A stretch of 64,000 nt of DNA, from the IMG/VR virus record IMGVR_UViG_3300023174_000080, positions 1-64,000 of that record; one strand, 5' to 3'. Position 1 is the first letter of the stretch; every line of letters starts with the position of its first letter. This stretch comes from a virus. The notes under the pieces were generated by a model. It was not told the origin of the DNA. It was given only the letters and a program-made list of their open reading frames with translations, and ran no database searches. A program made the translations under genes and the position numbers. Positions 1-31,423 of this stretch are shown here, piece after piece.

Positions 1-29
1 AGATTGACAATCTCCAGATTGACGAGTTG

Positions 30-58
30 TTGCGTTCCCTTCGCAGCTAGGATATAAT
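30..58 (+). promoter_or_regulatory. sigma70-type promoter, leaderless start
   Basis: TTGCGT at 30-35 and TATAAT at 53-58 are 17 bp apart. The ATG at 66 lies 7 bases after the -10 box, so the predicted start of transcription falls on or one base before the start codon. There is no room for a Shine-Dalgarno site in such an mRNA. Confidence 0.75.
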
Positions 59-65
59 AACCACC

Positions 66-263
66 ATGACCATCAACGTTAAGAATCGTGACACTGGCAA
101 GCTTGTTTACTGTGGCGATACCATTGTGGGAATCTATAACGAGCCGTGGATTTTTCTTGCTATGTCAAGCCCGATGACAGTGTGGGTGCGAGATCCGATC
201 ACGGGTGCCGTTGTTGACTTTGACCCGACGACTATGGTAATCGACGTGGACGTGGTAGCCTAA
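66..263 (+). CDS. small hypothetical protein, leaderless
   Basis: A 65-residue protein of unknown function. It is rich in beta-branched residues and likely all-beta, with no cysteine pair or membrane segment. The start is fixed by a promoter whose -10 box ends 7 bases before the ATG. It ends just before the first GC-rich inverted-repeat element. I recognise no family. Confidence 0.75.
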   Translation: MTINVKNRDTGKLVYCGDTIVGIYNEPWIFLAMSSPMTVWVRDPITGAVVDFDPTTMVIDVDVVA

Positions 264-290
264 CCTGTAGCCTTGGCACGGAGCTTGCAC

Positions 291-312
291 AGCCGCCGCG
301 CCTTGCGCGGCT
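291..312. repeat. GC-rich inverted repeat, element A
   Basis: The core is a 7-bp stem (295-301 with 305-311) and a 3-base loop, CTT. It is not followed by a T-run on either strand, so it is not a normal intrinsic terminator. Upstream bases 273-290 resemble those before elements B and C (CTTGGCA, then TTGCA). A minus-strand promoter at 316-343 points into it. Confidence 0.75.
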
Positions 313-315
313 GGC

Positions 316-343
316 ATTATATCATAATAAAAAAATAAAGCAA
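316..343 (-). promoter_or_regulatory. minus-strand promoter facing element A
   Basis: On the minus strand TTGCTT (338-343) and TATAAT (316-321) are 16 bp apart, and TGA just before the -10 box makes an extended -10. Transcription would start inside the inverted repeat and run leftward, antisense to the gene at 66-263. No minus-strand gene lies downstream. Confidence 0.7.
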
Positions 344-443
344 GAGAAAAAAACTAATAATGTCCACCCATCCACGGGCAAACCGCGCATGTTAGTTGAA
401 CTGGCAACGGGAGTCAAGAGCGAAAAAAAATGCATCCACCCTC

Positions 444-472
444 TTGCACGTACACGAAAGCGCGTCTATAAT
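444..472 (+). promoter_or_regulatory. sigma70-type promoter, leaderless start
   Basis: TTGCAC at 444-449 and TATAAT at 467-472 are 17 bp apart. The ATG at 479 follows after exactly 6 bases, so it should be base +1 of the mRNA. The stretch just upstream is A-rich followed by CCACCC, a context repeated before the genes at 1191 and 1900. Confidence 0.8.
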
Positions 473-478
473 AAGGGC

Positions 479-664
479 ATGACCAACGAAACCTGCAACG
501 GACGGCACACGAAGAATGATGGTTCCTACTGGGTCAATGATGCGCGTGGCATTCCCCTTGCCCGCGTCTGCGCCAAGTGCGCGGAGAAAAAGCTTTCCAA
601 GTATCGGAAGGATGTTCGCACGAACGCGAGCTATTGGGCAGACGAGATTGTTGACGGCGACTAA
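479..664 (+). CDS. small conserved phage zinc-ribbon-like protein
   Basis: A 61-residue protein with a CNGRH motif near the N-terminus and a CAKC pair at mid-length, followed by a lysine-rich helix and an acidic tail. The core (DARGIP, then CAKC, then KLSKYR) resembles a family of very small proteins of unknown function seen in many tailed phages. An upstream in-frame ATG at 389 is rejected because the promoter at 444-472 would place the transcript start at 479. Its last codons carry the -35 box of the next promoter. Confidence 0.85.
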   Translation: MTNETCNGRHTKNDGSYWVNDARGIPLARVCAKCAEKKLSKYRKDVRTNASYWADEIVDGD

Positions 665-680
665 GGTTCCCCTGTATAAT
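651..680 (+). promoter_or_regulatory. promoter with conserved leader
   Basis: TTGACG at 651-656, 18 bp, TATAAT at 675-680. Unlike its neighbours it has a leader of about 30 bases. That leader begins GGCAGTTAACCCGTAG and nearly matches the leader of the gene at 2250. The -35 box lies inside the end of the preceding gene. Confidence 0.8.
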
Positions 681-687
681 ATCCCGG

Positions 688-717
688 CAGTTAACCCGTA
701 GCACCTGAGAGAAAAAA
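688..717 (+). promoter_or_regulatory. shared 5' leader motif (copy 1)
   Basis: CAGTTAACCCGTAG is followed by a GAGAGAAAAA stretch and then the ATG at 718. The same arrangement occurs at 2219-2249. It contains only a weak purine-rich stretch rather than a GGAGG site. Its place at the predicted 5' end of both mRNAs suggests a shared RNA-level or operator function. Confidence 0.6.
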
Positions 718-1005
718 ATGATCATCTTCCGTCGCCTCATTCGTTCCAAGGGTTCCACGTCTGCGAAGCTTGTCGGTGGACACCGTTTCGCTGTCAGTGT
801 TAAGGAGCTGATCCGTCACGCAAAGCAGACGCGGCACGTCTACGCTTTCATTGACGAGAACGGCAACGAAGGAACGATCCGCAGCGGTGTTCTCATGCGG
901 ACGGTTGATTCCCACGTTCGCAACATCGTGACCGTTGGTGACGCGATCCAGCGTCCCCTGCCTTTCGGTGTGGAGTCAAGCGATATTTTTGGTATCGCTG
1001 CCTAG
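718..1005 (+). CDS. hypothetical basic protein
   Basis: A 95-residue protein of unknown function with an arginine/lysine-rich N-terminus and no cysteines. The start is the first ATG after the conserved leader. The stop at 1003-1005 is followed directly by the next promoter. No family recognised. Confidence 0.75.
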   Translation: MIIFRRLIRSKGSTSAKLVGGHRFAVSVKELIRHAKQTRHVYAFIDENGNEGTIRSGVLMRTVDSHVRNIVTVGDAIQRPLPFGVESSDIFGIAA

Positions 1006-1047
1006 TTGACAGCACCTTGGCTCCCGTGCTAGAATATGGCGGGAGCC
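1006..1047 (+). promoter_or_regulatory. promoter with -10 box inside an inverted repeat
   Basis: TTGACA (1006-1011), 18 bp, TAGAAT (1030-1035). The -10 box sits in the loop of a perfect 8-bp inverted repeat, GGCTCCCG (1019-1026) with CGGGAGCC (1040-1047). Because transcription would start in the right arm, the repeat is better placed as an operator than as an RNA hairpin. No start codon follows closely. Confidence 0.6.
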
Positions 1048-1063
1048 TTGGCATAGAGGTTGC

Positions 1064-1085
1064 AGCCGCCCTTCGGGCGTCGGCT
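1064..1085. repeat. GC-rich inverted repeat, element B
   Basis: AGCC and GGCT outer arms with a CCC/GGG inner stem and a TTC loop; the right arm has a small bulge. It is preceded by the CTTGGCA and TTGCA words also seen at elements A and C. A minus-strand promoter faces it. Confidence 0.7.
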
Positions 1086-1091
1086 GGCACT

Positions 1092-1120
1092 ATTATATCA
1101 TGCCTACGGAATAAAAGCAA
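1092..1120 (-). promoter_or_regulatory. minus-strand promoter facing element B
   Basis: On the minus strand TTGCTT (1115-1120), 17 bp, TATAAT (1092-1097) with an extended TGA. It reads leftward into the inverted repeat and the end of the gene at 718-1005. Confidence 0.75.
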
Positions 1121-1155
1121 CTAAAAAAAGAAAATAAAAAAGTGGTTCCACCCCC

Positions 1156-1184
1156 TTGCAAGCCCATGAAAGCGCGGGTATAAT
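1156..1184 (+). promoter_or_regulatory. sigma70-type promoter, leaderless start
   Basis: TTGCAA (1156-1161), 17 bp, TATAAT (1179-1184). The ATG at 1191 comes after 6 bases and is the predicted +1. An in-frame ATG at 1185 lies upstream of the predicted +1 and so would not be in the mRNA. Confidence 0.8.
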
Positions 1185-1190
1185 ATGCAC

Positions 1191-1373
1191 ATGACCCAGA
1201 CCGAGTTTGATTTCGAGGCAGATGATTTTGGCGTGAAGCTGAAGGATCCCTGCGAGTGGTGCGCGAAGCATGAGGCAGCGCACACTGTGGTCAAGCGTGG
1301 GCAGGACACTGGGCTTTGCAATAACTGTGCCGAGGATGATTACATGGATTGGGTTGAACAAATGAACGATTGA
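1191..1373 (+). CDS. small two-CxxC zinc-ribbon protein
   Basis: A 60-residue acidic protein with CEWC and CNNC knuckles about 27 residues apart, as in a small zinc ribbon. The promoter geometry selects the ATG at 1191 over 1185. The TGA stop lies within the -35 box (TTGACG) of the next promoter. The molecular role is unknown; small zinc ribbons in early phage regions often bind host proteins or nucleic acid, but nothing here shows which. Confidence 0.8.
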   Translation: MTQTEFDFEADDFGVKLKDPCEWCAKHEAAHTVVKRGQDTGLCNNCAEDDYMDWVEQMND

Positions 1374-1398
1374 CGGCACTAAGAAAAAAAGATATAAT
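1370..1398 (+). promoter_or_regulatory. promoter overlapping the preceding stop codon
   Basis: TTGACG (1370-1375), 17 bp, TATAAT (1393-1398); ATG at 1406 after 7 bases. The TGA stop of the preceding gene (1371-1373) is part of the -35 box. Confidence 0.8.
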
Positions 1399-1405
1399 GA
1401 CCGCC

Positions 1406-1570
1406 ATGACCAAGCCAAAGCGCATCAAGATCCAGCTACACAAGAAGGTGTGCGTCAAGTGTCTGACGCAATGGCAGACCAGCAATAAGGATAGCAAGGT
1501 GTGCCCTTCCTGTGTCAACGACCCTTCAACAATCCTGACGCGGTGCCTTGCAAACATTGTGAAGCTGTGA
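1406..1570 (+). CDS. small two-CxxC zinc-ribbon protein
   Basis: A 54-residue basic protein with CVKC and CPSC pairs, a compact zinc ribbon, and a third lone cysteine near the C-terminus. It is leaderless by promoter position. Its TGA stop (1568-1570) supplies the TG of the extended -10 element of the next gene. Function unknown. Confidence 0.8.
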   Translation: MTKPKRIKIQLHKKVCVKCLTQWQTSNKDSKVCPSCVNDPSTILTRCLANIVKL

Positions 1571-1576
1571 GAGAAT
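1548..1576 (+). promoter_or_regulatory. extended -10 promoter formed by a stop codon
   Basis: TTGCAA (1548-1553), 17 bp, GAGAAT (1571-1576). The TGA stop of the upstream gene directly precedes the -10 box and provides the TGn extension. The ATG at 1584 follows after 7 bases. Confidence 0.7.
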
Positions 1577-1583
1577 AACGCCC

Positions 1584-1754
1584 ATGAACAACTACGGATA
1601 CGGCTTCAGCATCGGTGACAAGGTTACTACTAACAGCGGGATGTTCAACGGCGTTGCTACCGTGTGGGAATACAGGAAGGAAGGTTATGTTGTTGTCAAG
1701 TATTTTGCTTCCCTGTATCGCGTCCACCATAAGACGCTCCAGCTTGTCAAGTAG
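1584..1754 (+). CDS. small IGDKV protein, possible VGDLV relative
   Basis: A 56-residue protein, leaderless by promoter position. The pattern of a start followed by IGDKV, a glycine turn, a YVVVKY strand and a closing strand matches the compact beta-barrel layout of the VGDLV proteins at 4283-7580. It may be a GC-rich distant relative of that group. Function unknown. Confidence 0.75.
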   Translation: MNNYGYGFSIGDKVTTNSGMFNGVATVWEYRKEGYVVVKYFASLYRVHHKTLQLVK

Positions 1755-1776
1755 TATCGTTGGCACGGCAGTTGCA

Positions 1777-1798
1777 AGCCGCCGCAAACGCGGCGGCT
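1777..1798. repeat. GC-rich inverted repeat, element C
   Basis: A perfect 9-bp stem (AGCCGCCGC with GCGGCGGCT) and an AAAC loop. There is no T-run. The upstream words TTGGCA and TTGCA are shared with elements A and B. Confidence 0.8.
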
Positions 1799-1801
1799 GC
1801 T

Positions 1802-1829
1802 ATTATATCATAGCTGAGAATAAAAGCAA
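1802..1829 (-). promoter_or_regulatory. minus-strand promoter facing element C
   Basis: On the minus strand TTGCTT (1824-1829), 16 bp, TATAAT (1802-1807) with TGA extension, reading leftward into element C. Confidence 0.7.
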
Positions 1830-1864
1830 GAATAAAAAGAAAAAAGAAAAAGCGTTCCCCCCCC

Positions 1865-1893
1865 TTGCGTGCGTCCACGACATCCTGTAGAAT
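1865..1893 (+). promoter_or_regulatory. sigma70-type promoter, leaderless start
   Basis: TTGCGT (1865-1870), 17 bp, TAGAAT (1888-1893); the ATG at 1900 follows after 6 bases. Confidence 0.75.
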
Positions 1894-1899
1894 AGGCAC

Positions 1900-2031
1900 A
1901 TGACCAAGTTGATCAAGGCAAAGCGGGTTGGCGGTCTTTACTTCCTGTCCATCGGTCGCATCCAGATTTCCTTTTGTGTCAAGCGGAAAGAAAAGAAAAA
2001 GAAGATGTTGACCATCCCTGCCAACCTGTGA
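1900..2031 (+). CDS. 43-residue basic peptide
   Basis: A very small, strongly basic protein with a short beta-rich N-terminal half, a lysine/arginine cluster at residues 29-35 and a hydrophobic tail. Leaderless by promoter position. The TGA stop forms the extended -10 of the next gene. Function unknown; nucleic-acid binding is possible from the charge alone. Confidence 0.65.
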   Translation: MTKLIKAKRVGGLYFLSIGRIQISFCVKRKEKKKKMLTIPANL

Positions 2032-2037
2032 GAGAAT
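2008..2037 (+). promoter_or_regulatory. extended -10 promoter formed by a stop codon
   Basis: TTGACC (2008-2013), 18 bp, GAGAAT (2032-2037) directly preceded by the TGA stop of the upstream gene. The ATG at 2044 is 6 bases downstream. The same design is seen at 1548-1576. Confidence 0.7.
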
Positions 2038-2043
2038 AAGCAC

Positions 2044-2193
2044 ATGGAAAACAAAAACCTGACCCTGACGGTTGACGAGATCCGCATGATCCGCCTTGCG
2101 CTCGCCTCTCATGTTTTCGGTGCGTCGAAGCAAACGGAAAACAACATTATGAATCTCATGTCGAAGCTTCACAAGGTACTTGACCCGCAGTAG
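2044..2193 (+). CDS. 49-residue helical protein
   Basis: A small protein that looks mostly alpha-helical (LTLTVDEIRMIRLAL, then a second helix with MNLMSKL). It resembles short hypothetical proteins of phage early regions but has no diagnostic motif. Leaderless by promoter position. Confidence 0.7.
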   Translation: MENKNLTLTVDEIRMIRLALASHVFGASKQTENNIMNLMSKLHKVLDPQ

Positions 2194-2209
2194 AAACCCG
2201 CTGTATAAT
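2180..2209 (+). promoter_or_regulatory. promoter with conserved leader
   Basis: TTGACC (2180-2185), 18 bp, TATAAT (2204-2209). The -35 box lies in the last codons of the upstream gene. The leader starts CGCAGTTAACCCGTAG. Confidence 0.8.
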
Positions 2210-2218
2210 GTCCCTCGC

Positions 2219-2249
2219 AGTTAACCCGTAGAACGAAAGAGAAAAAACA
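2219..2249 (+). promoter_or_regulatory. shared 5' leader motif (copy 2)
   Basis: CAGTTAACCCGTAG followed by a GAGAGAAAAA-like stretch before the ATG at 2250; near copy of the leader at 688-717. The proteins encoded downstream of the two copies do not look alike, so the leader itself is the conserved unit. Confidence 0.6.
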
Positions 2250-2486
2250 ATGTCCACTGTCAATGATATCGCGGCGAAGCTCAACAGCTACAAGCGTTCC
2301 AACGGTCAGCGTATGTTCTACGTCACTGACACGGCGATTGTCCTTGACAATCCGGTGGTGAGCGGTAACGAGGTTGCCGCAGAGGTTGAGGGAACCATCC
2401 TGCGTTTCACGCTCGGTGTCAACTGTTTTCAGATGATCCGCACGCGAAAGGTTGAGACTACCGAAACGTGGACGCTGGACGAGTGA
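2250..2486 (+). CDS. hypothetical protein
   Basis: A 78-residue protein with a helical N-terminus and a beta-rich remainder. One cysteine, no known motif. It is expressed from a promoter with a leader of about 30 bases rather than leaderless. Unknown function. Confidence 0.75.
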   Translation: MSTVNDIAAKLNSYKRSNGQRMFYVTDTAIVLDNPVVSGNEVAAEVEGTILRFTLGVNCFQMIRTRKVETTETWTLDE

Positions 2487-2497
2487 GAAAATAAAGC

Positions 2498-2526
2498 TTG
2501 ACAGCTCGCCGAGTCGGTGGCATAAT
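2498..2526 (+). promoter_or_regulatory. plus-strand promoter abutting element D
   Basis: TTGACA (2498-2503), 17 bp, CATAAT (2521-2526). The inverted repeat starts on the next base, so transcription would start within its left arm. A minus-strand promoter faces it from the other side. Confidence 0.7.
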
Positions 2527-2546
2527 AGCCGCCGATTTCGGCGGCT
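2527..2546. repeat. GC-rich inverted repeat, element D
   Basis: A perfect inverted repeat, AGCCGCCG / ATTT / CGGCGGCT, placed exactly between two convergent -10 boxes (2521-2526 plus, 2551-2556 minus). Confidence 0.8.
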
Positions 2547-2550
2547 GCAT

Positions 2551-2579
2551 ATTATATCACAAGGAAAAGAATAAAGCAA
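2551..2579 (-). promoter_or_regulatory. minus-strand promoter facing element D
   Basis: On the minus strand TTGCTT (2574-2579), 17 bp, TATAAT (2551-2556) with TGA extension. Confidence 0.8.
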
Positions 2580-2624
2580 TAAAGAAAAGCACGGGAAGAT
2601 AAGAAAAAAAAGACGTGCAGGCTC

Positions 2625-2654
2625 TTGATTCCCGTAGAGATTCCAGCGTATAAT
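2625..2654 (+). promoter_or_regulatory. sigma70-type promoter, leaderless start
   Basis: TTGATT (2625-2630), 18 bp, TATAAT (2649-2654); ATG at 2661 after 6 bases. Confidence 0.7.
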
Positions 2655-2660
2655 ATGGGC

Positions 2661-2792
2661 ATGAACGAGAACAACAGCTGGTGCAAGGATTGCGGCACGG
2701 AGAAGAACCTTGTCATTTTCTCCGAGGCACCAAAGGTTGTCCTTTGCACGGAGTGCGCCATGTGGCGCGACAGCAAGATTGACAAGCGGTAA
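2661..2792 (+). CDS. 43-residue two-CxxC zinc-ribbon protein
   Basis: CKDC and CTEC pairs flank a short beta segment, giving a minimal zinc ribbon. The stop TAA at 2790-2792 lies between the -35 and -10 boxes of the next promoter. Leaderless. It resembles the genes at 1191, 1406 and 2815 in layout. Function unknown. Confidence 0.8.
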   Translation: MNENNSWCKDCGTEKNLVIFSEAPKVVLCTECAMWRDSKIDKR

Positions 2793-2808
2793 AAAGGAAA
2801 GGTATAAT
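2779..2808 (+). promoter_or_regulatory. consensus promoter, leaderless start
   Basis: TTGACA (2779-2784), 18 bp, TATAAT (2803-2808); the ATG at 2815 is 6 bases downstream. Both boxes match consensus and the -35 lies inside the preceding gene. Confidence 0.85.
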
Positions 2809-2814
2809 ATCACC

Positions 2815-3006
2815 ATGACCAAGAACTGCGACGACTGTGGTGTGAAGCTGCACGGGCAGTGCATCGTTGACGGTGGCAAGCTGATGTGCTTGGACTGCGC
2901 GGAAGCGTTCAACGATGAACAGGAGTTCGGCATGGTGGACGACCGGGAGGAAACGGACGGGGATATCCACGATGATCTGGTGGATATGTATTACAACGAA
3001 TATTAG
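2815..3006 (+). CDS. small zinc-ribbon protein with acidic tail
   Basis: A 63-residue protein with CDDC and CLDC pairs separated by about 20 residues, then an acidic helix-rich tail. The start follows from the leaderless promoter. The stop TAG at 3004-3006 is followed directly by the -35 of the next promoter. Confidence 0.8.
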   Translation: MTKNCDDCGVKLHGQCIVDGGKLMCLDCAEAFNDEQEFGMVDDREETDGDIHDDLVDMYYNEY

Positions 3007-3035
3007 TTGACTCCTGCTGGCGGGTGAGCTATAAT
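3007..3035 (+). promoter_or_regulatory. plus-strand promoter abutting element E
   Basis: TTGACT (3007-3012), 17 bp, TATAAT (3030-3035), directly followed by the inverted repeat. No start codon lies close downstream. Confidence 0.75.
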
Positions 3036-3054
3036 AGCCGCCCGCTGCGCGGGC
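3036..3054. repeat. GC-rich inverted repeat, element E
   Basis: A 6-bp stem CCCGC-centred with a TGC loop, inside the AGCCGCC...GGGCT frame common to all six elements. Confidence 0.7.
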
Positions 3055-3084
3055 TGGCACACTTATTGCCAGACATTCAGTACT

Positions 3085-3113
3085 ATTATATCAAACAGCC
3101 GCCGTGTTGTCAA
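3085..3113 (-). promoter_or_regulatory. full-consensus minus-strand promoter facing element E
   Basis: On the minus strand TTGACA (3108-3113), 17 bp, TATAAT (3085-3090), with TGA extending the -10. Both hexamers are perfect consensus. It reads leftward through element E and antisense to the gene at 2815-3006. Confidence 0.85.
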
Positions 3114-3148
3114 GCTAAAAGCGCAGGAAAAGAAAAAAAGATATGCGC

Positions 3149-3177
3149 TTGCATATGTCCCCCGTTCGTGAGAGTAT
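3149..3177 (+). promoter_or_regulatory. extended -10 promoter, leaderless start
   Basis: TTGCAT (3149-3154), 17 bp, GAGTAT (3172-3177) preceded by TGA. The ATG at 3184 follows after 6 bases; a GTG at 3178 in the same frame lies before the predicted +1. Confidence 0.65.
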
Positions 3178-3183
3178 GTGCGT

Positions 3184-3549
3184 ATGACCAACAACAACAT
3201 GACCATCGAGATCCACGCGGGCGACGAGCTTCAGGAGATCAGTGTGCCCACCAAGTGGGAGATCTGCGAGCGTTGCGAGGGCAACGGCAAGCACGACCCT
3301 GAGTCGTTCTCCAACGGCTTCACCGCGAGCGAGTTCAATGACCTCTTCGACGACGAGGAGGAGCGCGAAAACTATTTCAATGGCAAGCACGATGTTGCGT
3401 GCCGCGAGTGCAACGCCTCGGGCAAGGTGCGCGTGCCTGACCTTAGCTCTCTCACGGACGAGGAGCGCGAAGGCTACGAGCGTGCGCTGGAGGACCGTGC
3501 TGACTACGAGCGCGAGTGCCGCTACGAGCGCCGGTACCTCGGGTACTAG
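3184..3549 (+). CDS. DnaJ-type zinc-finger-like protein
   Basis: A 121-residue acidic protein with two CxxCxGxG-like motifs, CERCEGNGK and CRECNASGK, about 50 residues apart. This is the repeat that binds zinc in the DnaJ cysteine-rich domain and in small stand-alone DnaJ-like zinc fingers. The C-terminus is rich in Glu, Arg and Tyr. There is no J domain, so it is not a full co-chaperone. GC-rich and leaderless like its neighbours. Confidence 0.75.
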   Translation: MTNNNMTIEIHAGDELQEISVPTKWEICERCEGNGKHDPESFSNGFTASEFNDLFDDEEERENYFNGKHDVACRECNASGKVRVPDLSSLTDEEREGYERALEDRADYERECRYERRYLGY

Positions 3550-3609
3550 TTGCCCCTGTCAAGGGGGTGGTGGTTGGCTAAATAAAAAAAATAAAAGCCT
3601 CCCACCCCC

Positions 3610-3638
3610 TTGACGAATATCCACAGGTATGGTAAACT
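3610..3638 (+). promoter_or_regulatory. plus-strand promoter abutting element F
   Basis: TTGACG (3610-3615), 17 bp, TAAACT (3633-3638), directly followed by AGCC and the element F inverted repeat. Confidence 0.6.
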
Positions 3639-3640
3639 AG

Positions 3641-3661
3641 CCGCCTTGCAAAGCAAGGCGG
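3641..3661. repeat. GC-rich inverted repeat, element F
   Basis: A perfect 9-bp stem (CCGCCTTGC with GCAAGGCGG) and an AAA loop. Not followed by a T-run. Confidence 0.8.
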
Positions 3662-3678
3662 GAGGCTGGGACACCTAT

Positions 3679-3707
3679 ATTATATCATGGGTGAATAGGT
3701 CGCGCAA
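3679..3707 (-). promoter_or_regulatory. minus-strand promoter facing element F
   Basis: On the minus strand TTGCGC (3702-3707), 17 bp, TATAAT (3679-3684) with TGA extension. Confidence 0.7.
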
Positions 3708-3732
3708 GAAATAAAAAAAGATATTCCACCTC

Positions 3733-3775
3733 TTGTCCACCACCATCCTGTCAAGGTAAGCTAGAGACATAGGAG
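3733..3775 (+). promoter_or_regulatory. promoter and ribosome binding site
   Basis: TTGTCC (3733-3738), 18 bp, TAAGCT (3757-3762), then AGGAG (3771-3775) 8 bases before the ATG at 3784. Unlike the leaderless genes before it, this gene has a clear Shine-Dalgarno site. Confidence 0.55.
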
Positions 3776-3783
3776 AAAAGATT

Positions 3784-4194
3784 ATGGCTAGCAAAGACTA
3801 CGAGAAGAACGATAAGCTGTATGCAAAGATTGAGCAGAGGATTGAACAGGTTGCGCTCATCATGCATAGATTAAATAACATGTGGAGCTTCACAGGTACT
3901 CAGCTGTCCTATGCCTGTGACAACTACATGCGTCCCCGTGACCTTGCTACACTAGAGGAGCGTGTGCATTGCTTGGTGCAGGCTTATGCTGCACTAACAA
4001 AGAGCGTGACCTTGTATACATCTCAGGGTTATGTGCTGCCACAGTTCTGGGATGAAACGTTTGGCAAGCTAGGACAAGATATAATCTTTACCTTGCCCGA
4101 GATGCTGCATGTCAAAAAAGAAAAAGCCTTCTATAAAAATTTGCAAAAGACCTTCACCCTTGCGTGGGGGGAGTCCCCCTCCCTCCCCCTCTAA
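3784..4194 (+). CDS. hypothetical helical protein
   Basis: A 136-residue protein that is mostly helical, with two cysteines and no recognisable motif. It is the last gene of the GC-rich block and is less GC-rich than the genes before it. Its start is set by AGGAG. Unknown function. Confidence 0.8.
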   Translation: MASKDYEKNDKLYAKIEQRIEQVALIMHRLNNMWSFTGTQLSYACDNYMRPRDLATLEERVHCLVQAYAALTKSVTLYTSQGYVLPQFWDETFGKLGQDIIFTLPEMLHVKKEKAFYKNLQKTFTLAWGESPSLPL

Positions 4195-4282
4195 GGGGCG
4201 TATTTCCGGAAAATAAGTCTCTATGATATTGACATTGACCCTAAAAGTGCTCTATGGTCGTTTTTAAATTCCGGGCCAAAAA

Positions 4283-4543
4283 ATGAAAAAATTCAAGTTC
4301 AAAGTTGGTGATCTTGTTGCCTGTTACAACGATCCCGACAATTTTAAAATAATACTCGGTTGGGTTGTAAGCCGTTGGAAAAATAGACATGGTGAAAATA
4401 ATTACCATATTCATTGGAGCGACATAGCCGATAATCCCGATTATATCCAATCACCTATAGATGAATATGGTGTGAATGAATGTTATAATTTGCTACAAAA
4501 AGCTATCGAAACAGATACATGGTCGGGCAAAAAAATTCTGTAA
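4283..4543 (+). CDS. VGDLV-family small protein 1
   Basis: An 86-residue protein with KVGDLVACY near the N-terminus, then ILGWVVS and YHIHW strands and a C-terminal helix. The layout suggests a small SH3-like or KOW-like beta-barrel. It is the first of an array of related genes running to 7580. Function unknown; an adaptor or binding module is a guess from fold alone. Confidence 0.8.
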   Translation: MKKFKFKVGDLVACYNDPDNFKIILGWVVSRWKNRHGENNYHIHWSDIADNPDYIQSPIDEYGVNECYNLLQKAIETDTWSGKKIL

Positions 4544-4564
4544 AAAATTTTTTGGAAATTTTTC

Positions 4565-4828
4565 ATGAAAGATTCAAAATACAACATAGGAGATCTTGTA
4601 GCTACTTATGTTGAGCTTGATGATGCAAATGATAAATTATTATTAGGATGGATAGTTAGTAAAAACAAATATGTCACCATAGATAACAAAATGACATGGA
4701 TATATGATATAGAATGGGCCGATGGTGAAATGGAAGATGAAGTGGAAGAAGACGTTGTTTATAATGTCATAAAAGCATATCGGGAAGCAAAGCGTTACAA
4801 GCGTTGGACGCGAAGTAGATGGATATGA
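4565..4828 (+). CDS. VGDLV-family small protein 2
   Basis: An 87-residue paralogue of the gene at 4283: NIGDLVATY, then LLLGWIVS, then YDIEWADG and an acidic stretch, ending in a basic helix. The pattern GDLV / GWIVS / EW is shared in order. It overlaps the next gene by 10 bases. Confidence 0.8.
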   Translation: MKDSKYNIGDLVATYVELDDANDKLLLGWIVSKNKYVTIDNKMTWIYDIEWADGEMEDEVEEDVVYNVIKAYREAKRYKRWTRSRWI

Positions 4829-5544
4829 TAACTACCGAAGATGAATTAATAAAAAGATGCGTAGAATTAGTGAACGGACCCCCTCTGCCGGTGATTGGCA
4901 AGGGGGATAAACGTTTTGGCATGACGCTAGAGAGTTATATGAATATCGATATAAATTCTCGCGTAACAAGCGATATTGAAAGTCTTGATTTAGAAATAAA
5001 AGCAAAAATAAAAAAGGAAACAGACTTAACGCTTTTCTCAACAAAGCCAGCTTTTCTACGCTTGAATAGCGATGAGTTCTTTCGTATTCATAACAAATTA
5101 AAAGATAACACTGAATCACTATACACAGACGTAGGCGGCGGTGTGAACTCTTTTGGTTTGCAAATAAGCATCCAACAAACGGCTGAAGACATAGAAATGA
5201 TTATTTATGATGCTGAACGGAATATAAACCGCGCTTCAATCAACTTTGGTCACATCAAGCATATAGCAAGGATGAAAATGCGGAACCTCTTGGTCGCCTA
5301 CGGCGACAGATTGGAGGTTGCGGGCGTCGAACATGTCCGGTTTGATTCAGTGCATATTCATCAAAATTTGAATTTGACGAACGAAAAGATTCGTGACTTT
5401 CTACTTAATAATAAGATGGTTTATTCTTTCAGACAGCGGAAGCGTCATGGGAAATATAAAGACCATGGAAGTGCGTTCCGTTTGACGGATCCAAAATATT
5501 TGAAAGAATTATATAACAATTATGAAGCAATAGAACGTAAATGA
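4819..5544 (+). CDS. MvaI/BcnI-like restriction endonuclease
   Basis: A 241-residue protein that resembles the MvaI/BcnI family of PD-(D/E)xK endonucleases, which cut DNA within short CC-rich sites. The visible core is a glycine-rich stretch followed by GMTLES near residue 34, a conserved Asp (DIES), the catalytic E-I-K (LEIKAK), and then LTLFSTKP, which matches the family's LTLF strand. There is no methyltransferase next to it, so it may act on host DNA or on unmodified competing DNA rather than as half of a restriction-modification pair. An alternative ATG at 4825 forms an ATGA overlap with the preceding gene. Confidence 0.7.
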   Translation: MDMITTEDELIKRCVELVNGPPLPVIGKGDKRFGMTLESYMNIDINSRVTSDIESLDLEIKAKIKKETDLTLFSTKPAFLRLNSDEFFRIHNKLKDNTESLYTDVGGGVNSFGLQISIQQTAEDIEMIIYDAERNINRASINFGHIKHIARMKMRNLLVAYGDRLEVAGVEHVRFDSVHIHQNLNLTNEKIRDFLLNNKMVYSFRQRKRHGKYKDHGSAFRLTDPKYLKELYNNYEAIERK

Positions 5545-5744
5545 GAGATGATATCCCAATCGGAACTCTGGTTTCCTTGAGCGGTGAAGATATAGGCGTT
5601 GTTGTTGATCACCATTATATAAAAGCTTGGCCCGATGAAAGTATAGATAATATAAAATATAAAGTTATCTATAAAGTTAATATCATCAATAAAAATTTAT
5701 ATAAATATTGCTATTCATACGAGATGGTAATATTAAGTGAGTAG
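5541..5744 (+). CDS. VGDLV-family small protein 3
   Basis: A 67-residue member with PIGTLVSLS, IGVVVDHH and YKVIYKV. It starts on an ATGA overlap with the nuclease stop, so it is translationally coupled to it. More diverged than its neighbours. Confidence 0.7.
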   Translation: MRDDIPIGTLVSLSGEDIGVVVDHHYIKAWPDESIDNIKYKVIYKVNIINKNLYKYCYSYEMVILSE

Positions 5745-5931
5745 GCAATTTCATATAGGCGATCTTGTACACTTCAAGATGGATAATGCATATTTTGGTC
5801 TTTGTATAGTTAAAGGCTTTGGAAAAAATATTTTTAAAGATGGTCAATATCAAATAATGAATTGTGCCACTGGTGAGGTATATATAGCTTTTGAATATGA
5901 GTTGTTTTCTCCCGATGAGTTCTATTTATAA
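5737..5931 (+). CDS. VGDLV-family small protein 4
   Basis: A 64-residue member with HIGDLVHFK. The start is a GTG at 5737 inside the end of the preceding gene (8-base overlap); no in-frame ATG would retain the GDLV strand. Function unknown. Confidence 0.7.
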   Translation: MSRQFHIGDLVHFKMDNAYFGLCIVKGFGKNIFKDGQYQIMNCATGEVYIAFEYELFSPDEFYL

Positions 5932-5945
5932 AACTAATTATATAC

Positions 5946-6176
5946 ATGAGTCGTAACCTTAACGAATATGTATATCCTTATAGAAAAATTAAGATTGGTA
6001 GCTTGGTTGAGGTGCGAATCATAAAACGCAAATTAGATCTTGCTATAGTTGTTGATCGAAATGTAGGCTTGCGTCAAAAAGATCATTGGTATGTTGTTCA
6101 TAGCATTTTTGAAGATCGTCAATACGCTGCATATCCAAATGAATTAAAAATACTTAGCGGAGAAACCGAAGATTAA
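5946..6176 (+). CDS. VGDLV-family small protein 5
   Basis: A 76-residue member with KIGSLVEVR, LAIVVDR and WYVVHS, then YPNELKIL. The closing NEL motif is also present in the gene at 6928. It lacks a clear ribosome binding site. Confidence 0.7.
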   Translation: MSRNLNEYVYPYRKIKIGSLVEVRIIKRKLDLAIVVDRNVGLRQKDHWYVVHSIFEDRQYAAYPNELKILSGETED

Positions 6177-22528: not shown

Positions 22529-23302
22529 ATGTCTAATCATATATCTTTTTCTGCTTTAAAGATTTGGAATGACTGTCCTTTTAAATATAAGTTAATTTAC
22601 GTAGATAGTGTTCAAAAATTTCGTGGAAGTGAACATACAGCTTTTGGTACTGCTTTACACGAAGCTTGTGAAAAAAAATTATTAGATAATAATATAGATG
22701 AAGTTGAATGCTTTAATTCTAAATTTGAAGAAGAATTAAAGAAAATTCCTTCTGATATAAATGTAGATAATAAACTTATTACTGAAATGAAAGAGCAGGG
22801 AAAGCAGCTATCTACAATGGCACTTCCCGCTCTTAAAGAAAAGTTTGGCAACTTTAAAGTATTATCTGCCGAAGAAGATATTCTTGAAGCAATCAATAAA
22901 ATCCCAGAGCTAAGTTATAATTTTAAAGGATATATTGATTTAATTCTTCAAACTGAAGATGGAAAAATTCATATTCTAGATTGGAAAACCTGCGCTTGGG
23001 GTTGGGATGCTAAAAAGAAGAGCGATCCAATGATTACATACCAGCTCACTTTTTATAAATACTTCTATGCTCAAAAACATAAGGTAGATCCAAAAAATAT
23101 TGAAACATACTTTGCTCTACTTAAGCGTACAGTAAAAAAAGATAATGTAGAAATATTTCGCGTAACCAGCGGTGACAAAAAAACAGAAAATGCATTTAAC
23201 TTATTAACAAAAGCGCTTTATAGTATTAATAAGAATTTTTTCCCAAAAAATCGCTTAAGTTGTAAATATTGCGAATTTAACAACACAAAGGAATGTCCTT
23301 AA
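22529..23302 (+). CDS. Cas4/RecB-like PD-(D/E)xK nuclease with Fe-S cluster
   Basis: A 257-residue nuclease of the RecB/Cas4 superfamily. Motifs in order: SALKIWNDCPFKYKL (first cluster Cys), FGTALHEACE (motif I), GYIDLI and ILDWKT (catalytic Asp and D-x-K), Q-x3-Y (YQLTFYKYF), and a C-terminal CKYCEF..ECP that completes a four-cysteine iron-sulphur cluster. The family degrades DNA ends or processes single-stranded DNA, in recombination or host DNA breakdown. There is no CRISPR locus nearby. Confidence 0.85.
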   Translation: MSNHISFSALKIWNDCPFKYKLIYVDSVQKFRGSEHTAFGTALHEACEKKLLDNNIDEVECFNSKFEEELKKIPSDINVDNKLITEMKEQGKQLSTMALPALKEKFGNFKVLSAEEDILEAINKIPELSYNFKGYIDLILQTEDGKIHILDWKTCAWGWDAKKKSDPMITYQLTFYKYFYAQKHKVDPKNIETYFALLKRTVKKDNVEIFRVTSGDKKTENAFNLLTKALYSINKNFFPKNRLSCKYCEFNNTKECP

Positions 23303-24282
23303 TGAAAACAGCCGTCATAACAGGTATTACAGGGCAAGATGGAAGCTACCTTGCTGAATTATTATTAGAAAAAGGTTATAAAGTAATAGGTCTAGTGCGT
23401 AGAAGCGCCATGGAAGATAAAAAATTTTATAACATAAATCATCTTCTACAAGATCCTAATTTAGTTTTAGAAAATGGGGATTTAACTGATTCCCCTTCTT
23501 TATGGAGAATCATAAAAGAATATAAACCAGATGAATTTTACAATCTTGCTGCACAAAGCCATGTAGGCGCATCTTTTACCTCCCCAGAAAGCACTTTAGA
23601 AATAAATGCTACTGGGGTTTTAAATTGTCTAGAAGCAATTCGTAATTTAAAGCCTGATACAAAATTTTATCAAGCTTCTACTAGCGAAATGTTTGGAGAT
23701 AATATGAATGCTCCTCAAAATGAAGAAACAGTATTATCTCCTGTTTCTCCATACGCTTGTGCAAAAGTATATGCTCATAATTTAGTTATTAACTATCGTA
23801 AAGCATATAATTTATTTGCATGCTCTGGTATTCTTTTTAATCACGAATCTCCTCGTCGTGGCGAACAATTTGTAACTAGAAAAATTACAAAAGCAGCGGC
23901 ACGAATTAAAATTGGTTTACAAAATGAATTACGTTTAGGAAATTTAGATGCTAAACGGGATTGGGGATATGCAAAGGAATACGTAGAAGGAATGTATTTA
24001 ATGCTACAGCATGAGTCACCAGACGATTATGTACTTGGTACGGGAATAACACACACTATTAGTGAATTTATTACTTGCATATCTGATATTGCTGGTTATA
24101 ATTTATTTAATCATGTAGTTATTGATGATAAATATAAACGTCCTAGTGAAGTTCCTCTATTGCTTGCCGATCCTTCAAAAGCAAAAAGAGTATTAGGATG
24201 GGAACCAAAAACTAATCTAAAACAACTAGCAGAATTAATGTATAATTCTGATCTAGAAAAGGAAAAAAATAATGTCAAATAA
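23302..24282 (+). CDS. gmd: GDP-mannose 4,6-dehydratase
   Basis: A 326-residue extended short-chain dehydrogenase that makes GDP-4-keto-6-deoxy-mannose from GDP-mannose using bound NADP. GITGQDGSYL is the dinucleotide motif, followed by the family signatures AAQSHVGASF, TSEMFG and YACAK (catalytic Tyr and Lys) and FNHESPRRGE. The chosen ATG at 23302 overlaps the previous stop (TAATG) with AAGGA 9 bases upstream; an ATG 9 bases earlier is in frame. First gene of the sugar cassette. Confidence 0.92.
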   Translation: MKTAVITGITGQDGSYLAELLLEKGYKVIGLVRRSAMEDKKFYNINHLLQDPNLVLENGDLTDSPSLWRIIKEYKPDEFYNLAAQSHVGASFTSPESTLEINATGVLNCLEAIRNLKPDTKFYQASTSEMFGDNMNAPQNEETVLSPVSPYACAKVYAHNLVINYRKAYNLFACSGILFNHESPRRGEQFVTRKITKAAARIKIGLQNELRLGNLDAKRDWGYAKEYVEGMYLMLQHESPDDYVLGTGITHTISEFITCISDIAGYNLFNHVVIDDKYKRPSEVPLLLADPSKAKRVLGWEPKTNLKQLAELMYNSDLEKEKNNVK

Positions 24283-25513
24283 AAAAATAAAGATCTTAAC
24301 TTTATCTGATCATCCACTTAGTCCTAGTGGTGTTGGTAGTCAAACTAATTATATACTTCAAGGTCTTCTAAAAACTGGTAAATATCAAATTATTTCTCTT
24401 GGTGGTGCGATTAAACATCAAGATTATAGACCAGTAAAATTTCACGAATTTGGAGATGATTATATTATCATTCCAGTTGATGGATACGGAACTCCAGAAT
24501 TGATTCGTACAATTTTAATGAAAGAAAAGCCTGATATTCTTTGGATGATGACAGATCCACGTTTTTATACATGGCTTTGGAATATGGAACAAGAAATACG
24601 TCCAAACATCCCAATTGTTTATTATCACGTATGGGATAATTATCCATATCCAAAGTTTAATCGTTCTTTTTATTTATCTAATGATAAAATTGCTACCATT
24701 TCAAAGCTTACCAGCGATATTGTTCGTGTAGTAGCACCAGAAGTTGAAGAACAATATATTCCTCATGCAGTAAGCCCAGAACTGTTTAAAATTCTTGATG
24801 AAAAAGAATACTCTCATTTACGTATGAAAGATAAGACGTTATTCTTCTGGACTAATCGGAATGCTCGTAGAAAGATGAGTGGAAGCGTAGTTTGGTGGTA
24901 TAAAGAATTTCTAGATAAAGTTGGACATGATAAAGCTTTCTTATTAATGCATACTGATCCAAAAGATCCACATGGTCAAGATCTTGTAGCTATTGCAGAA
25001 GAGCTTGGACTTACAAAAGAAAATTTTGCTATTTCTGCCGGTAAAGTACCAGCAGTTGATATGGCAAAATTTTATAATGCCGCTGATTGTACAATAAATA
25101 TTAGTGATGCAGAAGGGTTTGGCCTTTCTTGCTTAGAAAGCTTGTCATGCGGAACACCAGTTATAGCTAATAAGACAGGCGGTATGCAAGATCAGTTAAC
25201 TGATGGAGTGGACACATATGGAATCCTTATAGAGCCTTCTAGCCGTGCGGTGATTGGTTCACAAGATGTACCATATATTTATGAAGATCGCGTAAGTAAT
25301 ACTGATGTTGTTAATGCAATGATAAAAATTCATAATATGACGCGAGAAGAACGCAAGGCGCTTGGAAAAAAGGGATATGATAATGTTCAAAAGAACTTTA
25401 ATTTCCAAACTTTCCAAGAAACTTGGGATAAACTTCTAAGTGAAGTTCATGAAAAATATGGTTCTTGGGAAACACGCAAGGGATATAAATCTTGGAGCGT
25501 AAAGGAATACTAG
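24272..25513 (+). CDS. GT4-type glycosyltransferase 1
   Basis: A 413-residue GT-B fold glycosyltransferase. The N-terminal half begins with a Rossmann-like strand and SPSGVGSQ glycine loop; the C-terminal half has the GT4 donor-binding motif AEGFGLSCLESLSCGTP with E-x7-E. It transfers a nucleotide-activated sugar with retention. It overlaps gmd by 11 bases. Confidence 0.88.
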   Translation: MSNKKIKILTLSDHPLSPSGVGSQTNYILQGLLKTGKYQIISLGGAIKHQDYRPVKFHEFGDDYIIIPVDGYGTPELIRTILMKEKPDILWMMTDPRFYTWLWNMEQEIRPNIPIVYYHVWDNYPYPKFNRSFYLSNDKIATISKLTSDIVRVVAPEVEEQYIPHAVSPELFKILDEKEYSHLRMKDKTLFFWTNRNARRKMSGSVVWWYKEFLDKVGHDKAFLLMHTDPKDPHGQDLVAIAEELGLTKENFAISAGKVPAVDMAKFYNAADCTINISDAEGFGLSCLESLSCGTPVIANKTGGMQDQLTDGVDTYGILIEPSSRAVIGSQDVPYIYEDRVSNTDVVNAMIKIHNMTREERKALGKKGYDNVQKNFNFQTFQETWDKLLSEVHEKYGSWETRKGYKSWSVKEY

Positions 25514-25514
25514 A

Positions 25515-26720
25515 ATGAAAAAAATATTAATCAATGGTCCAGTATTAAGCAGAAGCGGTTATGGTGAAATGGCTCGTTTTGCATTACGTTCTTTAAAAGA
25601 TAGAAGCGATGTTGAATTATATCTTTTGCCAACATCTTGGGGAAATACCGGTTGGCTTTTTGAAGTTAATGAAGAAAGAAATTTTATTGATTCTCTTATT
25701 GCAAAAACACAACTTTATATACAGCAAAACGGCGGACGACCTCAATTTGATTTGTCTATACAAGTTTCTATTCCAAATGAATGGAAGAAAATAGCGGCTA
25801 TTAATATTGGTTATACCGCTGGCATAGAAACAAATCTCATCTCCCCAGCTTGGTTAGAAACAAGTCAACAGATGGATAAAATTATTGTTATTAGTGAACA
25901 TGCCAAGTCAGGGTTTGTAAATACAATATTTGGTAATCCACAAGGACAGCAATTTAAAGTAACAGTTCCTGTAGAAGTGGTACATTTGCCATATAGAAAT
26001 ACACAAAAGAAAGAAATTGATTTACAATTAAAATATGATTTTAACTTCTTATCTGTTTGCCAATGGGGGCCAAGAAAGAACTTAGATCAAACAATTATTG
26101 GGTTTTTAGAAGAATTTTCTAATGAAGAAGTTGGTTTGGTATTAAAAATTAATACTGCCAATGATTCTATTATGGATAGAGTATTGACTCAAAAAAGGCT
26201 AGAAGTCTTATTAAGTGCATATCCAAATAGAAAATGCTCTATAACCCTTCTGCATGGTCATTTAAGCGATGCAGAAGTGGAATCGCTATACACTCATCCA
26301 AAGATTAAGGCAATCGTTTCTACGACTCATGGAGAGGGTTTTGGATTACCTTTGCTAGAAGCCGCCGCCAATTCCTTACCAGTTATAGCAACAGATTGGA
26401 GTGGTCACACAGATTTCCTATATTTACCAGAAGACGATGATAAGAAAAGAATGTTTGGTAAAATCGATTATGATTTAAAACCAATCGACGCAGCCCATGT
26501 CTGGAAGGGAGTTTTAGAAGAAGGAACACAGTGGGCTTATCCAAAAATGGTAAGTTACAAAGATCGTTTACGTGATTGTTATAAAGATTGGGGTCGATAT
26601 AAGTCACAAGCTAAGAAACTAGCGCCTTGGGTAAAAGAAAATTTTGAAAAAACTAAATTGCAAGATAAGTTTAGCTCTTTATTAACATCAAATAAAGATA
26701 CAGATTTGTTGGTATTATAA
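25515..26720 (+). CDS. GT4-type glycosyltransferase 2
   Basis: A 401-residue GT-B enzyme with SRSGYGEMAR in the N-terminal glycine loop and HGEGFGLPLLEAAANSLP as the donor motif. It lies one base after the preceding stop. Similar in layout to its neighbours at 24272 and 26722, so the three may have come from duplications. Confidence 0.88.
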   Translation: MKKILINGPVLSRSGYGEMARFALRSLKDRSDVELYLLPTSWGNTGWLFEVNEERNFIDSLIAKTQLYIQQNGGRPQFDLSIQVSIPNEWKKIAAINIGYTAGIETNLISPAWLETSQQMDKIIVISEHAKSGFVNTIFGNPQGQQFKVTVPVEVVHLPYRNTQKKEIDLQLKYDFNFLSVCQWGPRKNLDQTIIGFLEEFSNEEVGLVLKINTANDSIMDRVLTQKRLEVLLSAYPNRKCSITLLHGHLSDAEVESLYTHPKIKAIVSTTHGEGFGLPLLEAAANSLPVIATDWSGHTDFLYLPEDDDKKRMFGKIDYDLKPIDAAHVWKGVLEEGTQWAYPKMVSYKDRLRDCYKDWGRYKSQAKKLAPWVKENFEKTKLQDKFSSLLTSNKDTDLLVL

Positions 26721-26721
26721 G

Positions 26722-27915: not shown

Positions 27916-27916
27916 T

Positions 27917-28684: not shown

Positions 28685-28685
28685 A

Positions 28686-29345: not shown

Positions 29346-29357
29346 AATTTCATAAAA

Positions 29358-30943: not shown

Positions 30944-30945
30944 AA

Positions 30946-31422: not shown

Positions 31423-31423
31423 C

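What the first reader, a model, noticed from the sequence alone, without database searches (positions are those of the whole stretch)
66..3549. Array of single-gene leaderless transcription units
At ten starts (66, 479, 1191, 1406, 1584, 1900, 2044, 2661, 2815, 3184) a -35/-10 promoter with 17-18 bp spacing ends 6-7 bases before the ATG, so the start codon should be the first or second base of the mRNA. None has room for a ribosome binding site. Single leaderless phage mRNAs are known, but a consecutive array of tiny genes, each with such a promoter, is unusual. It may favour translation by 70S ribosomes or under altered initiation early in infection.
Basis: partly seen in the sequence, partly recalled or inferred. 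Interest (0 to 1): 0.85.

Follow-up and report, generated by a model that had tools for sequence, protein, structure and literature searches.

The report
Phage array of leaderless mini-gene cassettes
One end of this virus contig carries a row of tiny genes, each with its own bacterial-type promoter placed so that the messenger RNA should begin at the start codon with no ribosome-binding site; the arrangement is kept in related viruses and recurs with different genes in a distantly related one, so it looks like a real strategy, probably for fast early takeover of the host, though no RNA data exist.

Summary
All ten starts have a sigma70-type promoter (spacer 17-18) ending 6-7 nt before the ATG; by strict criteria seven remain, against 0.06 per shuffled copy. 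The same array occurs in at least three other IMG/VR phages, always beside the same AT-rich phage genes, so it is not a chimera. Across 42 non-redundant leaderless starts, the base before ATG is a pyrimidine in all 42 and the -10 lies 6-7 nt away in 38; codon 2 is ACC/AAC in 36 of 47 starts (inner codons 6%). Most other phage genes use Shine-Dalgarno sites. Most ORFs are under purifying selection, and 25 gene families share this start, with single cassettes gained, lost or replaced between phages. A distant phage (terminase 32% identical) has an independent array of 12 leaderless genes. Corrections: two leadered genes sit inside the array, blocks lack internal terminators so units are not strictly single-gene, and convergent-promoter/hairpin modules separate blocks. 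Best reading: an early, host-takeover-type array of portable leaderless cassettes read by host RNA polymerase. Early timing, 70S initiation and protein functions are inferred. Leaderless phage genes and monocistronic takeover arrays are each known; the combination is a new variant.

The parts
30..263 (+). Cassette: promoter TTGCGT-17-TATAAT (30-58), leaderless ORF ATG 66, 65 aa
   Evidence: homologues in L005 (same position) and G001 25759
444..664 (+). Cassette: promoter 444-472, leaderless ORF ATG 479, 61 aa, CxxC-type
   Evidence: four phages, omega 0.1-0.7
651..1005 (+). Leadered gene inside the array: promoter 651-680, leader with GCAGTTAACCCG, ORF 718, 95 aa
   Evidence: leadered in all four phages
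1156..1373 (+). Cassette: promoter 1156-1184, leaderless ORF 1191, 60 aa, two CxxC
1370..1570 (+). Cassette: promoter 1370-1398 (overlaps upstream stop), leaderless ORF 1406, 54 aa, zinc-ribbon-like
   Evidence: omega 0.12-0.43
1548..1754 (+). Cassette: promoter TTGCAA-17-GAGAAT (1548-1576, largely inside upstream ORF), leaderless ORF 1584, 56 aa; absent from L005
1865..2031 (+). Cassette: promoter 1865-1893, leaderless ORF 1900, 43 aa
2008..2193 (+). Cassette: promoter TTGACC-18-GAGAAT (2008-2037), leaderless ORF 2044, 49 aa; absent from L005
2180..2486 (+). Leadered gene inside the array: promoter 2180-2209, leader with GCAGTTAACCCG, ORF 2250, 78 aa
2625..2792 (+). Cassette: promoter 2625-2654, leaderless ORF 2661, 43 aa, zinc-ribbon-like
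2779..3006 (+). Cassette: promoter TTGACA-18-TATAAT (2779-2808), leaderless ORF 2815, 63 aa, two CxxC
3149..3549 (+). Cassette: promoter TTGCAT-17-GAGTAT (3149-3177), leaderless ORF 3184, 121 aa, two CxxC
   Evidence: homologue in Serratia phage Parlo
273..343 (.). Module 1: sigma54-like TTGGCAC-N5-TTGCA, GC hairpin, minus-strand promoter (-10 316-321, -35 338-343)
1006..1120 (.). Module 2: plus promoter TTGACA-18-TAGAAT within an inverted repeat, sigma54-like site, hairpin, minus-strand promoter (-10 1092-1097)
1760..1829 (.). Module 3: sigma54-like site, hairpin, minus-strand promoter (-10 1802-1807)
2498..2579 (.). Module 4: plus promoter TTGACA-17-CATAAT, hairpin, minus-strand promoter (-10 2551-2556)
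3007..3113 (.). Module 5: plus promoter TTGACT-17-TATAAT, hairpin, minus-strand promoter TTGACA-17-TATAAT (-10 3085-3090)
3610..3707 (.). Module 6: plus promoter TTGACG-17-TAAACT, hairpin, minus-strand promoter (-10 3679-3684)
3784..4194 (+). Gene at the array's right border, SD-led (AGGAG), conserved as the border in all four phages

Best explanation
The region is a phage array of very small gene cassettes. Each leaderless cassette is a strong sigma70-type promoter read by host RNA polymerase, fused to an ATG so that transcription starts at, or within about 2 nt of, the A of the start codon, followed by one short gene; the next cassette's promoter often overlaps the end of the upstream gene. 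The mRNAs carry no Shine-Dalgarno site; they start with an A/C-rich, weakly structured coding end (AUGACCAAC-like) suited to direct recognition of a 5'-terminal AUG. Because promoter and start signal are fused, a unit of roughly 200 bp can be gained, lost or swapped without disturbing its neighbours, and it is expressed as soon as the DNA enters. The likely role is early host takeover or counter-defence by many small, fast-changing proteins. Shown: the architecture, its non-randomness, conservation, coding status of most ORFs, cassette turnover. Inferred: transcription starts, use by host RNA polymerase, early timing, translation by 5'-AUG recognition, takeover role.
For: Strict leaderless promoters: 7, 6, 15 and 17 in the four arrays, against 0.06-0.58 in shuffles. 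In 42 non-redundant starts, -1 is C or T in all, spacing is 6 or 7 nt in 38. Codon 2 is ACC/AAC in 36 of 47 leaderless starts, 5.8% of inner codons, 2 of 22 leadered array genes; family-level Fisher P 0.005-0.017. 5' coding ends are less structured (-4.2 against -7.4 kcal/mol, P 7e-9). dN/dS is below 1 wherever it could be computed, 0.1-0.4 for most families. Other phage genes are mostly SD-led: 47 of 77, against 41 of 502 internal ATGs. The array adjoins the same phage genes in L005, L007 and L021. Single cassettes differ between phages while order is kept, and a family switches between leaderless and leadered. An unrelated array of 12 leaderless genes, with C at -1 in 12 of 12, lies in L134, whose terminase is 32% identical. 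Precedents for early monocistronic small-gene arrays: PMC2147016; for 5'-AUG and CA-rich downstream effects: PMC4611024.
Against: No RNA 5' ends, host or expression timing are known. Leadered genes lie inside the array. Some -10 boxes are weak (GAGAAT/GAGTAT). No terminator separates genes within a block, so longer transcripts may also cover downstream genes. None of the small proteins has a confident family assignment, so the takeover role rests on analogy. One family (1191) diverges too fast for dN/dS to be decisive (omega 0.3-0.7), and two window ORFs (1584, 2044) have no relatives to test.
Confidence: 0.66

Rival explanations
1. Ordinary consequence of the host: the host bacterium itself makes many leaderless mRNAs (as Actinobacteria and Deinococcus-Thermus do), and the phage simply uses host-style promoters for its early genes. 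Nothing phage-specific is selected.
For: Leaderless genes exceed 20% in some phyla (PMC3160421). Array G+C (about 50%) differs from the phage body (about 30%) and may resemble the host. Predicted leaderless genes occur in Cluster O mycobacteriophages (PMC4351075).
Against: Most of the rest of this phage uses SD sites. TTGGCAY-N5-TTGCA sites suggest a host with sigma54, which Actinobacteria lack (own knowledge). No array was met in bacterial genomes: the pattern scan found only isolated sites.
Confidence: 0.2
2. The transcripts are leadered: longer RNAs started upstream (block promoters or module promoters) are the real mRNAs, and the near-ATG promoters are minor or serve another purpose.
For: No terminators between close genes; extra promoters in modules; some -10 boxes weak.
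Against: An SD-like 4-mer lies upstream of only 4 of 42 starts, and there it overlaps or abuts the -10; the fixed -10-to-ATG distance, pyrimidine at -1 and codon-2 bias would have no reason to exist.
Confidence: 0.1
3. RNA polymerase sink: the dense promoters on both strands mainly titrate host RNA polymerase, and the small ORFs matter little.
For: 12 plus and 9 minus promoter matches in 4.2 kb against about 0.8 expected per strand; convergent promoters around hairpins in 24 modules.
Against: Most ORFs are under purifying selection and keep their ATG at +1. A sink would not need start codons. The two functions are not exclusive.
Confidence: 0.1
4. Assembly chimera or contamination joining a 50% G+C fragment to a 30% G+C phage.
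For: Sharp G+C shift near 4.2 kb at a contig end.
Against: The same junction and gene order occur in independent records L005, L007 and L021 with substantial divergence.
Confidence: 0.01

Closest known systems
Host-takeover regions of Bacillus phages 0305phi8-36 and SPO1 (PMC2147016)
   Same: Run of very small genes, each apparently on its own transcript, proposed to be selected for rapid synthesis after injection.
   Different: No leaderless start architecture is described there; different phages and hosts; here leadered genes and convergent-promoter modules are interspersed.
Thermus phage phiYS40 middle/late leaderless mRNAs (PMC3594737)
   Same: Most middle/late transcripts lack a leader; initiation-factor levels change during infection.
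   Different: Those are middle/late genes studied experimentally; here a compact array in a phage whose other genes are mostly SD-led, with no mapping.
Cluster O mycobacteriophage promoters PL1, PR2, PL2 (PMC4351075)
   Same: SigA-type promoter with +1 predicted at the first base of the start codon.
   Different: A few operon promoters per genome, not a consecutive one-per-gene array.
SIRV2-type early anti-defence regulons of archaeal viruses (PMC11065993)
   Same: Many small, fast-evolving single genes sharing one strong early promoter sequence.
   Different: Archaeal promoters (TATA/BRE); early timing and anti-defence activity were tested there, not here.
Start-associated sequences of Cluster K mycobacteriophages (PMC3203893)
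   Same: Conserved short element fused to the starts of many unrelated small genes, some with inverted repeats.
   Different: SAS contain an SD (AGGAG); these elements are promoters with no SD.
Phage morons (PMC2147016)
   Same: Genes carrying their own promoter that come and go singly.
   Different: Morons usually carry a terminator and stand alone; here cassettes are tandem, without a terminator each, and the promoter is fused to the start codon.

Membership tests
Leaderless genes | Promoter -10 placed so that +1 falls at or within a few nt of the start codon | tested here: met
   6-7 nt in 38 of 42
Leaderless genes | AUG start codon, no SD site in the upstream window | tested here: met
   all ATG (by the selection rule); SD-like 4-mer upstream of 4 of 42, overlapping or abutting the -10
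Leaderless genes | Primary mRNA 5' end mapped at the start codon | not testable with these tools
   no RNA data held
Host-takeover array (SPO1 / 0305phi8-36 type) | Cluster of very small genes of unknown function with one promoter each | tested here: met
Host-takeover array (SPO1 / 0305phi8-36 type) | Monocistronic transcripts ended by terminators | tested here: not met
   five terminator-like sites against 4.6 expected in shuffles; none between close genes
Host-takeover array (SPO1 / 0305phi8-36 type) | Early expression and action on host processes | not testable with these tools
   inferred only
Moron | Own promoter and terminator; sporadic presence among relatives | tested here: inconclusive
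   own promoter and sporadic presence met; terminator per gene not found
Early anti-defence regulon (SIRV2 type) | Shared strong promoter on many unrelated small genes | tested here: met
   25 leaderless families share the element
Early anti-defence regulon (SIRV2 type) | Demonstrated anti-defence activity | not testable with these tools
   no family match; PADLOC-DB, which lists defence proteins, gives no hit either
Sigma54 promoter (module element) | TGGCAC-N5-TTGC with fixed GG/GC spacing | tested here: met
   3 strict TTGGCA sites in the window array, none elsewhere in the record; at matching module positions in relatives. Use by sigma54 not testable

The most novel reading that the evidence does not exclude
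Some large tailed phages keep a dedicated regulon of early leaderless cassettes, separate from their SD-led body genes, so that early proteins are translated by 5'-AUG recognition and escape host or phage control of canonical initiation; the start signature (promoter + YATG + A-rich codon 2) has arisen or spread in at least two distantly related phage lineages.
Probability: 0.2. Interest if true: 0.8.

Novelty: new variant of a known kind. Interest (0 to 1): 0.6.

Why it matters
It suggests that some phages package early genes as minimal promoter-plus-AUG cassettes, which would explain how small takeover genes are swapped so easily. It gives a sequence signature (TTGAC-17-TATAAT-N5-YATGAMC) for finding fast-evolving, easily overlooked small phage genes, a class in which anti-defence proteins may lie. 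It also offers a natural test of when leaderless translation is favoured, since one phage appears to use both leaderless and SD-led initiation.

Tried and rejected
Chimera: rejected by independent contigs L005, L007 and L021. Near-identical DNA in cultured phages: none for 1-6000. Rfam: only two tRNAs, so the hairpin modules match no known RNA family. Pfam, PHROGs and PADLOC: no confident assignment for the small proteins. Relatives of the 718 protein in GTDB genomes: none; relatives of the border protein: only the same four IMG/VR contigs. Arrays in the nearest cultured relatives (by terminase), Microcystis phage Mel-JY01 (whole) and Flavobacterium phage immuto (100 of 160 kb): absent. Leaderless pattern in bacterial genomes: seven isolated sites, no array. 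The GCAGTTAACCCG leader pattern returned mainly contigs without an array. Early guess that all units are single-gene: dropped for lack of terminators. Fold predictions were not run: alignments are too shallow and the proteins too small to be informative.
Full report
What the window is. The window is the first 64 kb of a 118,946-base IMG/VR virus record. The body encodes a T4-like myovirus: terminase 44% identical to Microcystis phage Mel-JY01 and Flavobacterium phage immuto, a gp6-like baseplate protein about 30% identical to the same phages, PhoH and a head protease. G+C is about 50% in bases 1-4200 and about 30% beyond. The host is unknown.

The observation. Seven have TATAAT or TAGAAT; 1584, 2044 and 3184 have weaker GAGAAT/GAGTAT. 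Strict matches number 7, against a mean of 0.06 (maximum 1) in 300 dinucleotide shuffles. A slightly stricter scan finds 7 in the array and none on the plus strand of the other 115 kb.

It is real and conserved. The 3184 and 718 proteins lead to other IMG/VR contigs: L005/L020 (75 kb), L006 and L007 (nearly identical to each other) and L021 (43 kb). All carry the same kind of array; in L005, L007 and L021, read through, it runs into AT-rich phage genes as in the window, so the G+C step is not a chimera. In L007 and L021 the array extends several kb further upstream; the window shows only its right-hand part. Strict leaderless promoters are 6, 15 and 17 in these three arrays, against 0.07, 0.24 and 0.58 in shuffles.

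The starts look leaderless in detail. In 42 non-redundant starts from four phages, the base before ATG is C (38) or T (4); the gap between -10 and ATG is 6 nt (27) or 7 nt (11), which puts the A at the usual +1 distance after a pyrimidine, the common start context of sigma70 RNA polymerase (own knowledge). The starts were picked by a promoter near an ATG, so ATG itself and the spacing range are partly imposed; the pyrimidine at -1 and the codon-2 bias are not. Codon 2 is ACC or AAC in 36 of 47 leaderless starts, 5.8% of inner codons, and 2 of 22 leadered array genes; counted by family, which I tallied by eye, the contrast stays (P 0.005-0.017). The first 40 nt are less structured than inner windows and rich in A and C. 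A review reports that leaderless translation needs a 5'-terminal AUG, is antagonised by IF3, and that CA multimers after the start codon raise expression with or without a leader (PMC4611024).

The ORFs are mostly real genes. dN/dS is below 1 in every comparison where it could be computed, mostly 0.1-0.4. The 1191 family is very divergent (0.3-0.7), and 1584 and 2044 have no relative to test. 21 of 47 leaderless proteins hold two or more CxxC motifs, pointing to small zinc ribbons, but no library gives a confident family. One, 3184, has a 47% identical match over 60% of its length in Serratia phage Parlo.

Contrast with the rest of the phage. Of 77 long body ORFs, 47 have an SD-like site at a usable distance, against 41 of 502 internal ATGs. 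So this phage appears to use two initiation modes. Two genes inside the array (718, 2250) are also leadered, with a shared GCAGTTAACCCG leader.

Cassette behaviour. Gene order is largely kept across the four phages while single cassettes are missing, added or replaced; for example L005 lacks the 1584 and 2044 genes together with the module between them. Family F15 is leaderless in one phage and SD-leadered in another; F16 is listed as switching too, but its G001 copy (23728) was placed among the leadered starts by the script's score and has no SD. 25 leaderless families share the same start element. This fits exchange of self-contained units, perhaps by recombination at the repeated promoters, an inference.

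A second lineage. L134 has 12 leaderless genes in 6 kb, mostly TTGACA-17-TATAAT, C at -1 in 12 of 12, codon 2 always AAN; its stretch has 13 strict matches against 0.05 in shuffles. Its terminase is 32% identical to the window phage's, and apart from one short weak match (27 aa, E 0.001) its array proteins are unrelated. The strategy therefore recurs. The nearest cultured relatives lack it: no array in all of Mel-JY01 nor in 100 of 160 kb of immuto, only scattered single sites. In GTDB genomes a related pattern gave seven isolated sites and no array.

The intergenic modules. Blocks of one to three genes are separated by modules found 24 times in the four phages: a plus-strand promoter (sigma70, or a TTGGCAY-N5-TTGCA site matching sigma54), an AGCC...GGCT hairpin, and a minus-strand promoter usually with an extended -10 (TGATATAAT) 16-17 bp from TTGCTT/TTGACT, pointing at the hairpin. 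Strict TTGGCA-N6-TTGC sites occur three times in the window array and nowhere else in the record. Some sigma70 module promoters have the -10 in the loop of an inverted repeat whose arms change together between copies (GGCTCCCG/CGGGAGCC, CTGCCCA/TGGGCAG, GTCCCTG/CAGGGAC), seen by eye. Their function is open: block terminator with antisense promoter, regulatory RNA, or polymerase sink. No Rfam family matches, and only two of the six window hairpins score as terminators.

Mechanism and confidence. The best reading is an early, host-takeover-type array of leaderless cassettes read by host RNA polymerase. Architecture, conservation, coding status and turnover are shown; transcription starts, timing, 5'-AUG initiation and function are inferred. 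The chief rival is that the host itself is rich in leaderless genes, which would make the feature ordinary; the SD-led phage body and the sigma54-like sites argue against it, but only the host's identity will settle it.

Relation to the known. Leaderless phage transcripts are known in phiYS40 (PMC3594737) and predicted in Cluster O mycobacteriophages (PMC4351075). Arrays of monocistronic small genes are described in SPO1 and 0305phi8-36 (PMC2147016), and shared strong early promoters on anti-defence genes in archaeal viruses (PMC11065993). I found no report in the held library of a consecutive leaderless one-promoter-per-gene array in a tailed phage, but most subscription papers are not in that library. 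I rate it a new variant of a known kind.

Noticed in passing
window 273-343, 1006-1120, 1760-1829, 2498-2579, 3007-3113, 3610-3707: Convergent promoter pairs facing a GC hairpin between gene blocks; 24 copies across four phages, function unknown.
   Followed up: partly
window 273-288, 1048-1063, 1760-1775: Sigma54-like TTGGCAY-N5-TTGCA sites directly before the hairpins; conserved in relatives at the same place and otherwise absent from the record. Unusual for a phage.
   Followed up: partly
window 1006-1055; L007 4330-4380; L021 8762-8812: Promoter whose -10 (TGCTAGAAT) lies in the loop of an inverted repeat with arms that covary between copies.
   Followed up: no
window 687-717 and 2217-2247: 31-nt repeat (GCAGTTAACCCG...) forming the leaders of the two leadered genes in the array; also before related genes in the other phages.
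   Followed up: partly
L134 5700-11719 and L092: Independent array of 12 leaderless small genes in a distantly related T4-like phage, with its own repeated element (CCTAAGTCC..TGTTGACAAGCACTTA).
   Followed up: partly
window 1 and L005 1: Two IMG/VR contigs begin at exactly the same base inside the array, suggesting a common assembly break at a variable cassette.
   Followed up: no
window 46471-56982 and 36823-42816: Very large proteins of 3503 and 1997 aa in the baseplate region.
   Followed up: no
window 23293-33566: Long run of sugar-nucleotide, glycosyltransferase, methyltransferase and aminotransferase-like genes (named from sequence by eye).
   Followed up: no
L090 1-1800: Another phage contig with two TATAATTAACTCATGAACAA starts and repeated hairpin-forming elements; possibly a third case.
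   Followed up: no
L021 (G001 21595) and L007 810: A 219-aa leaderless gene related to proteins of Mycobacterium, Streptomyces and Synechococcus phages.
   Followed up: no
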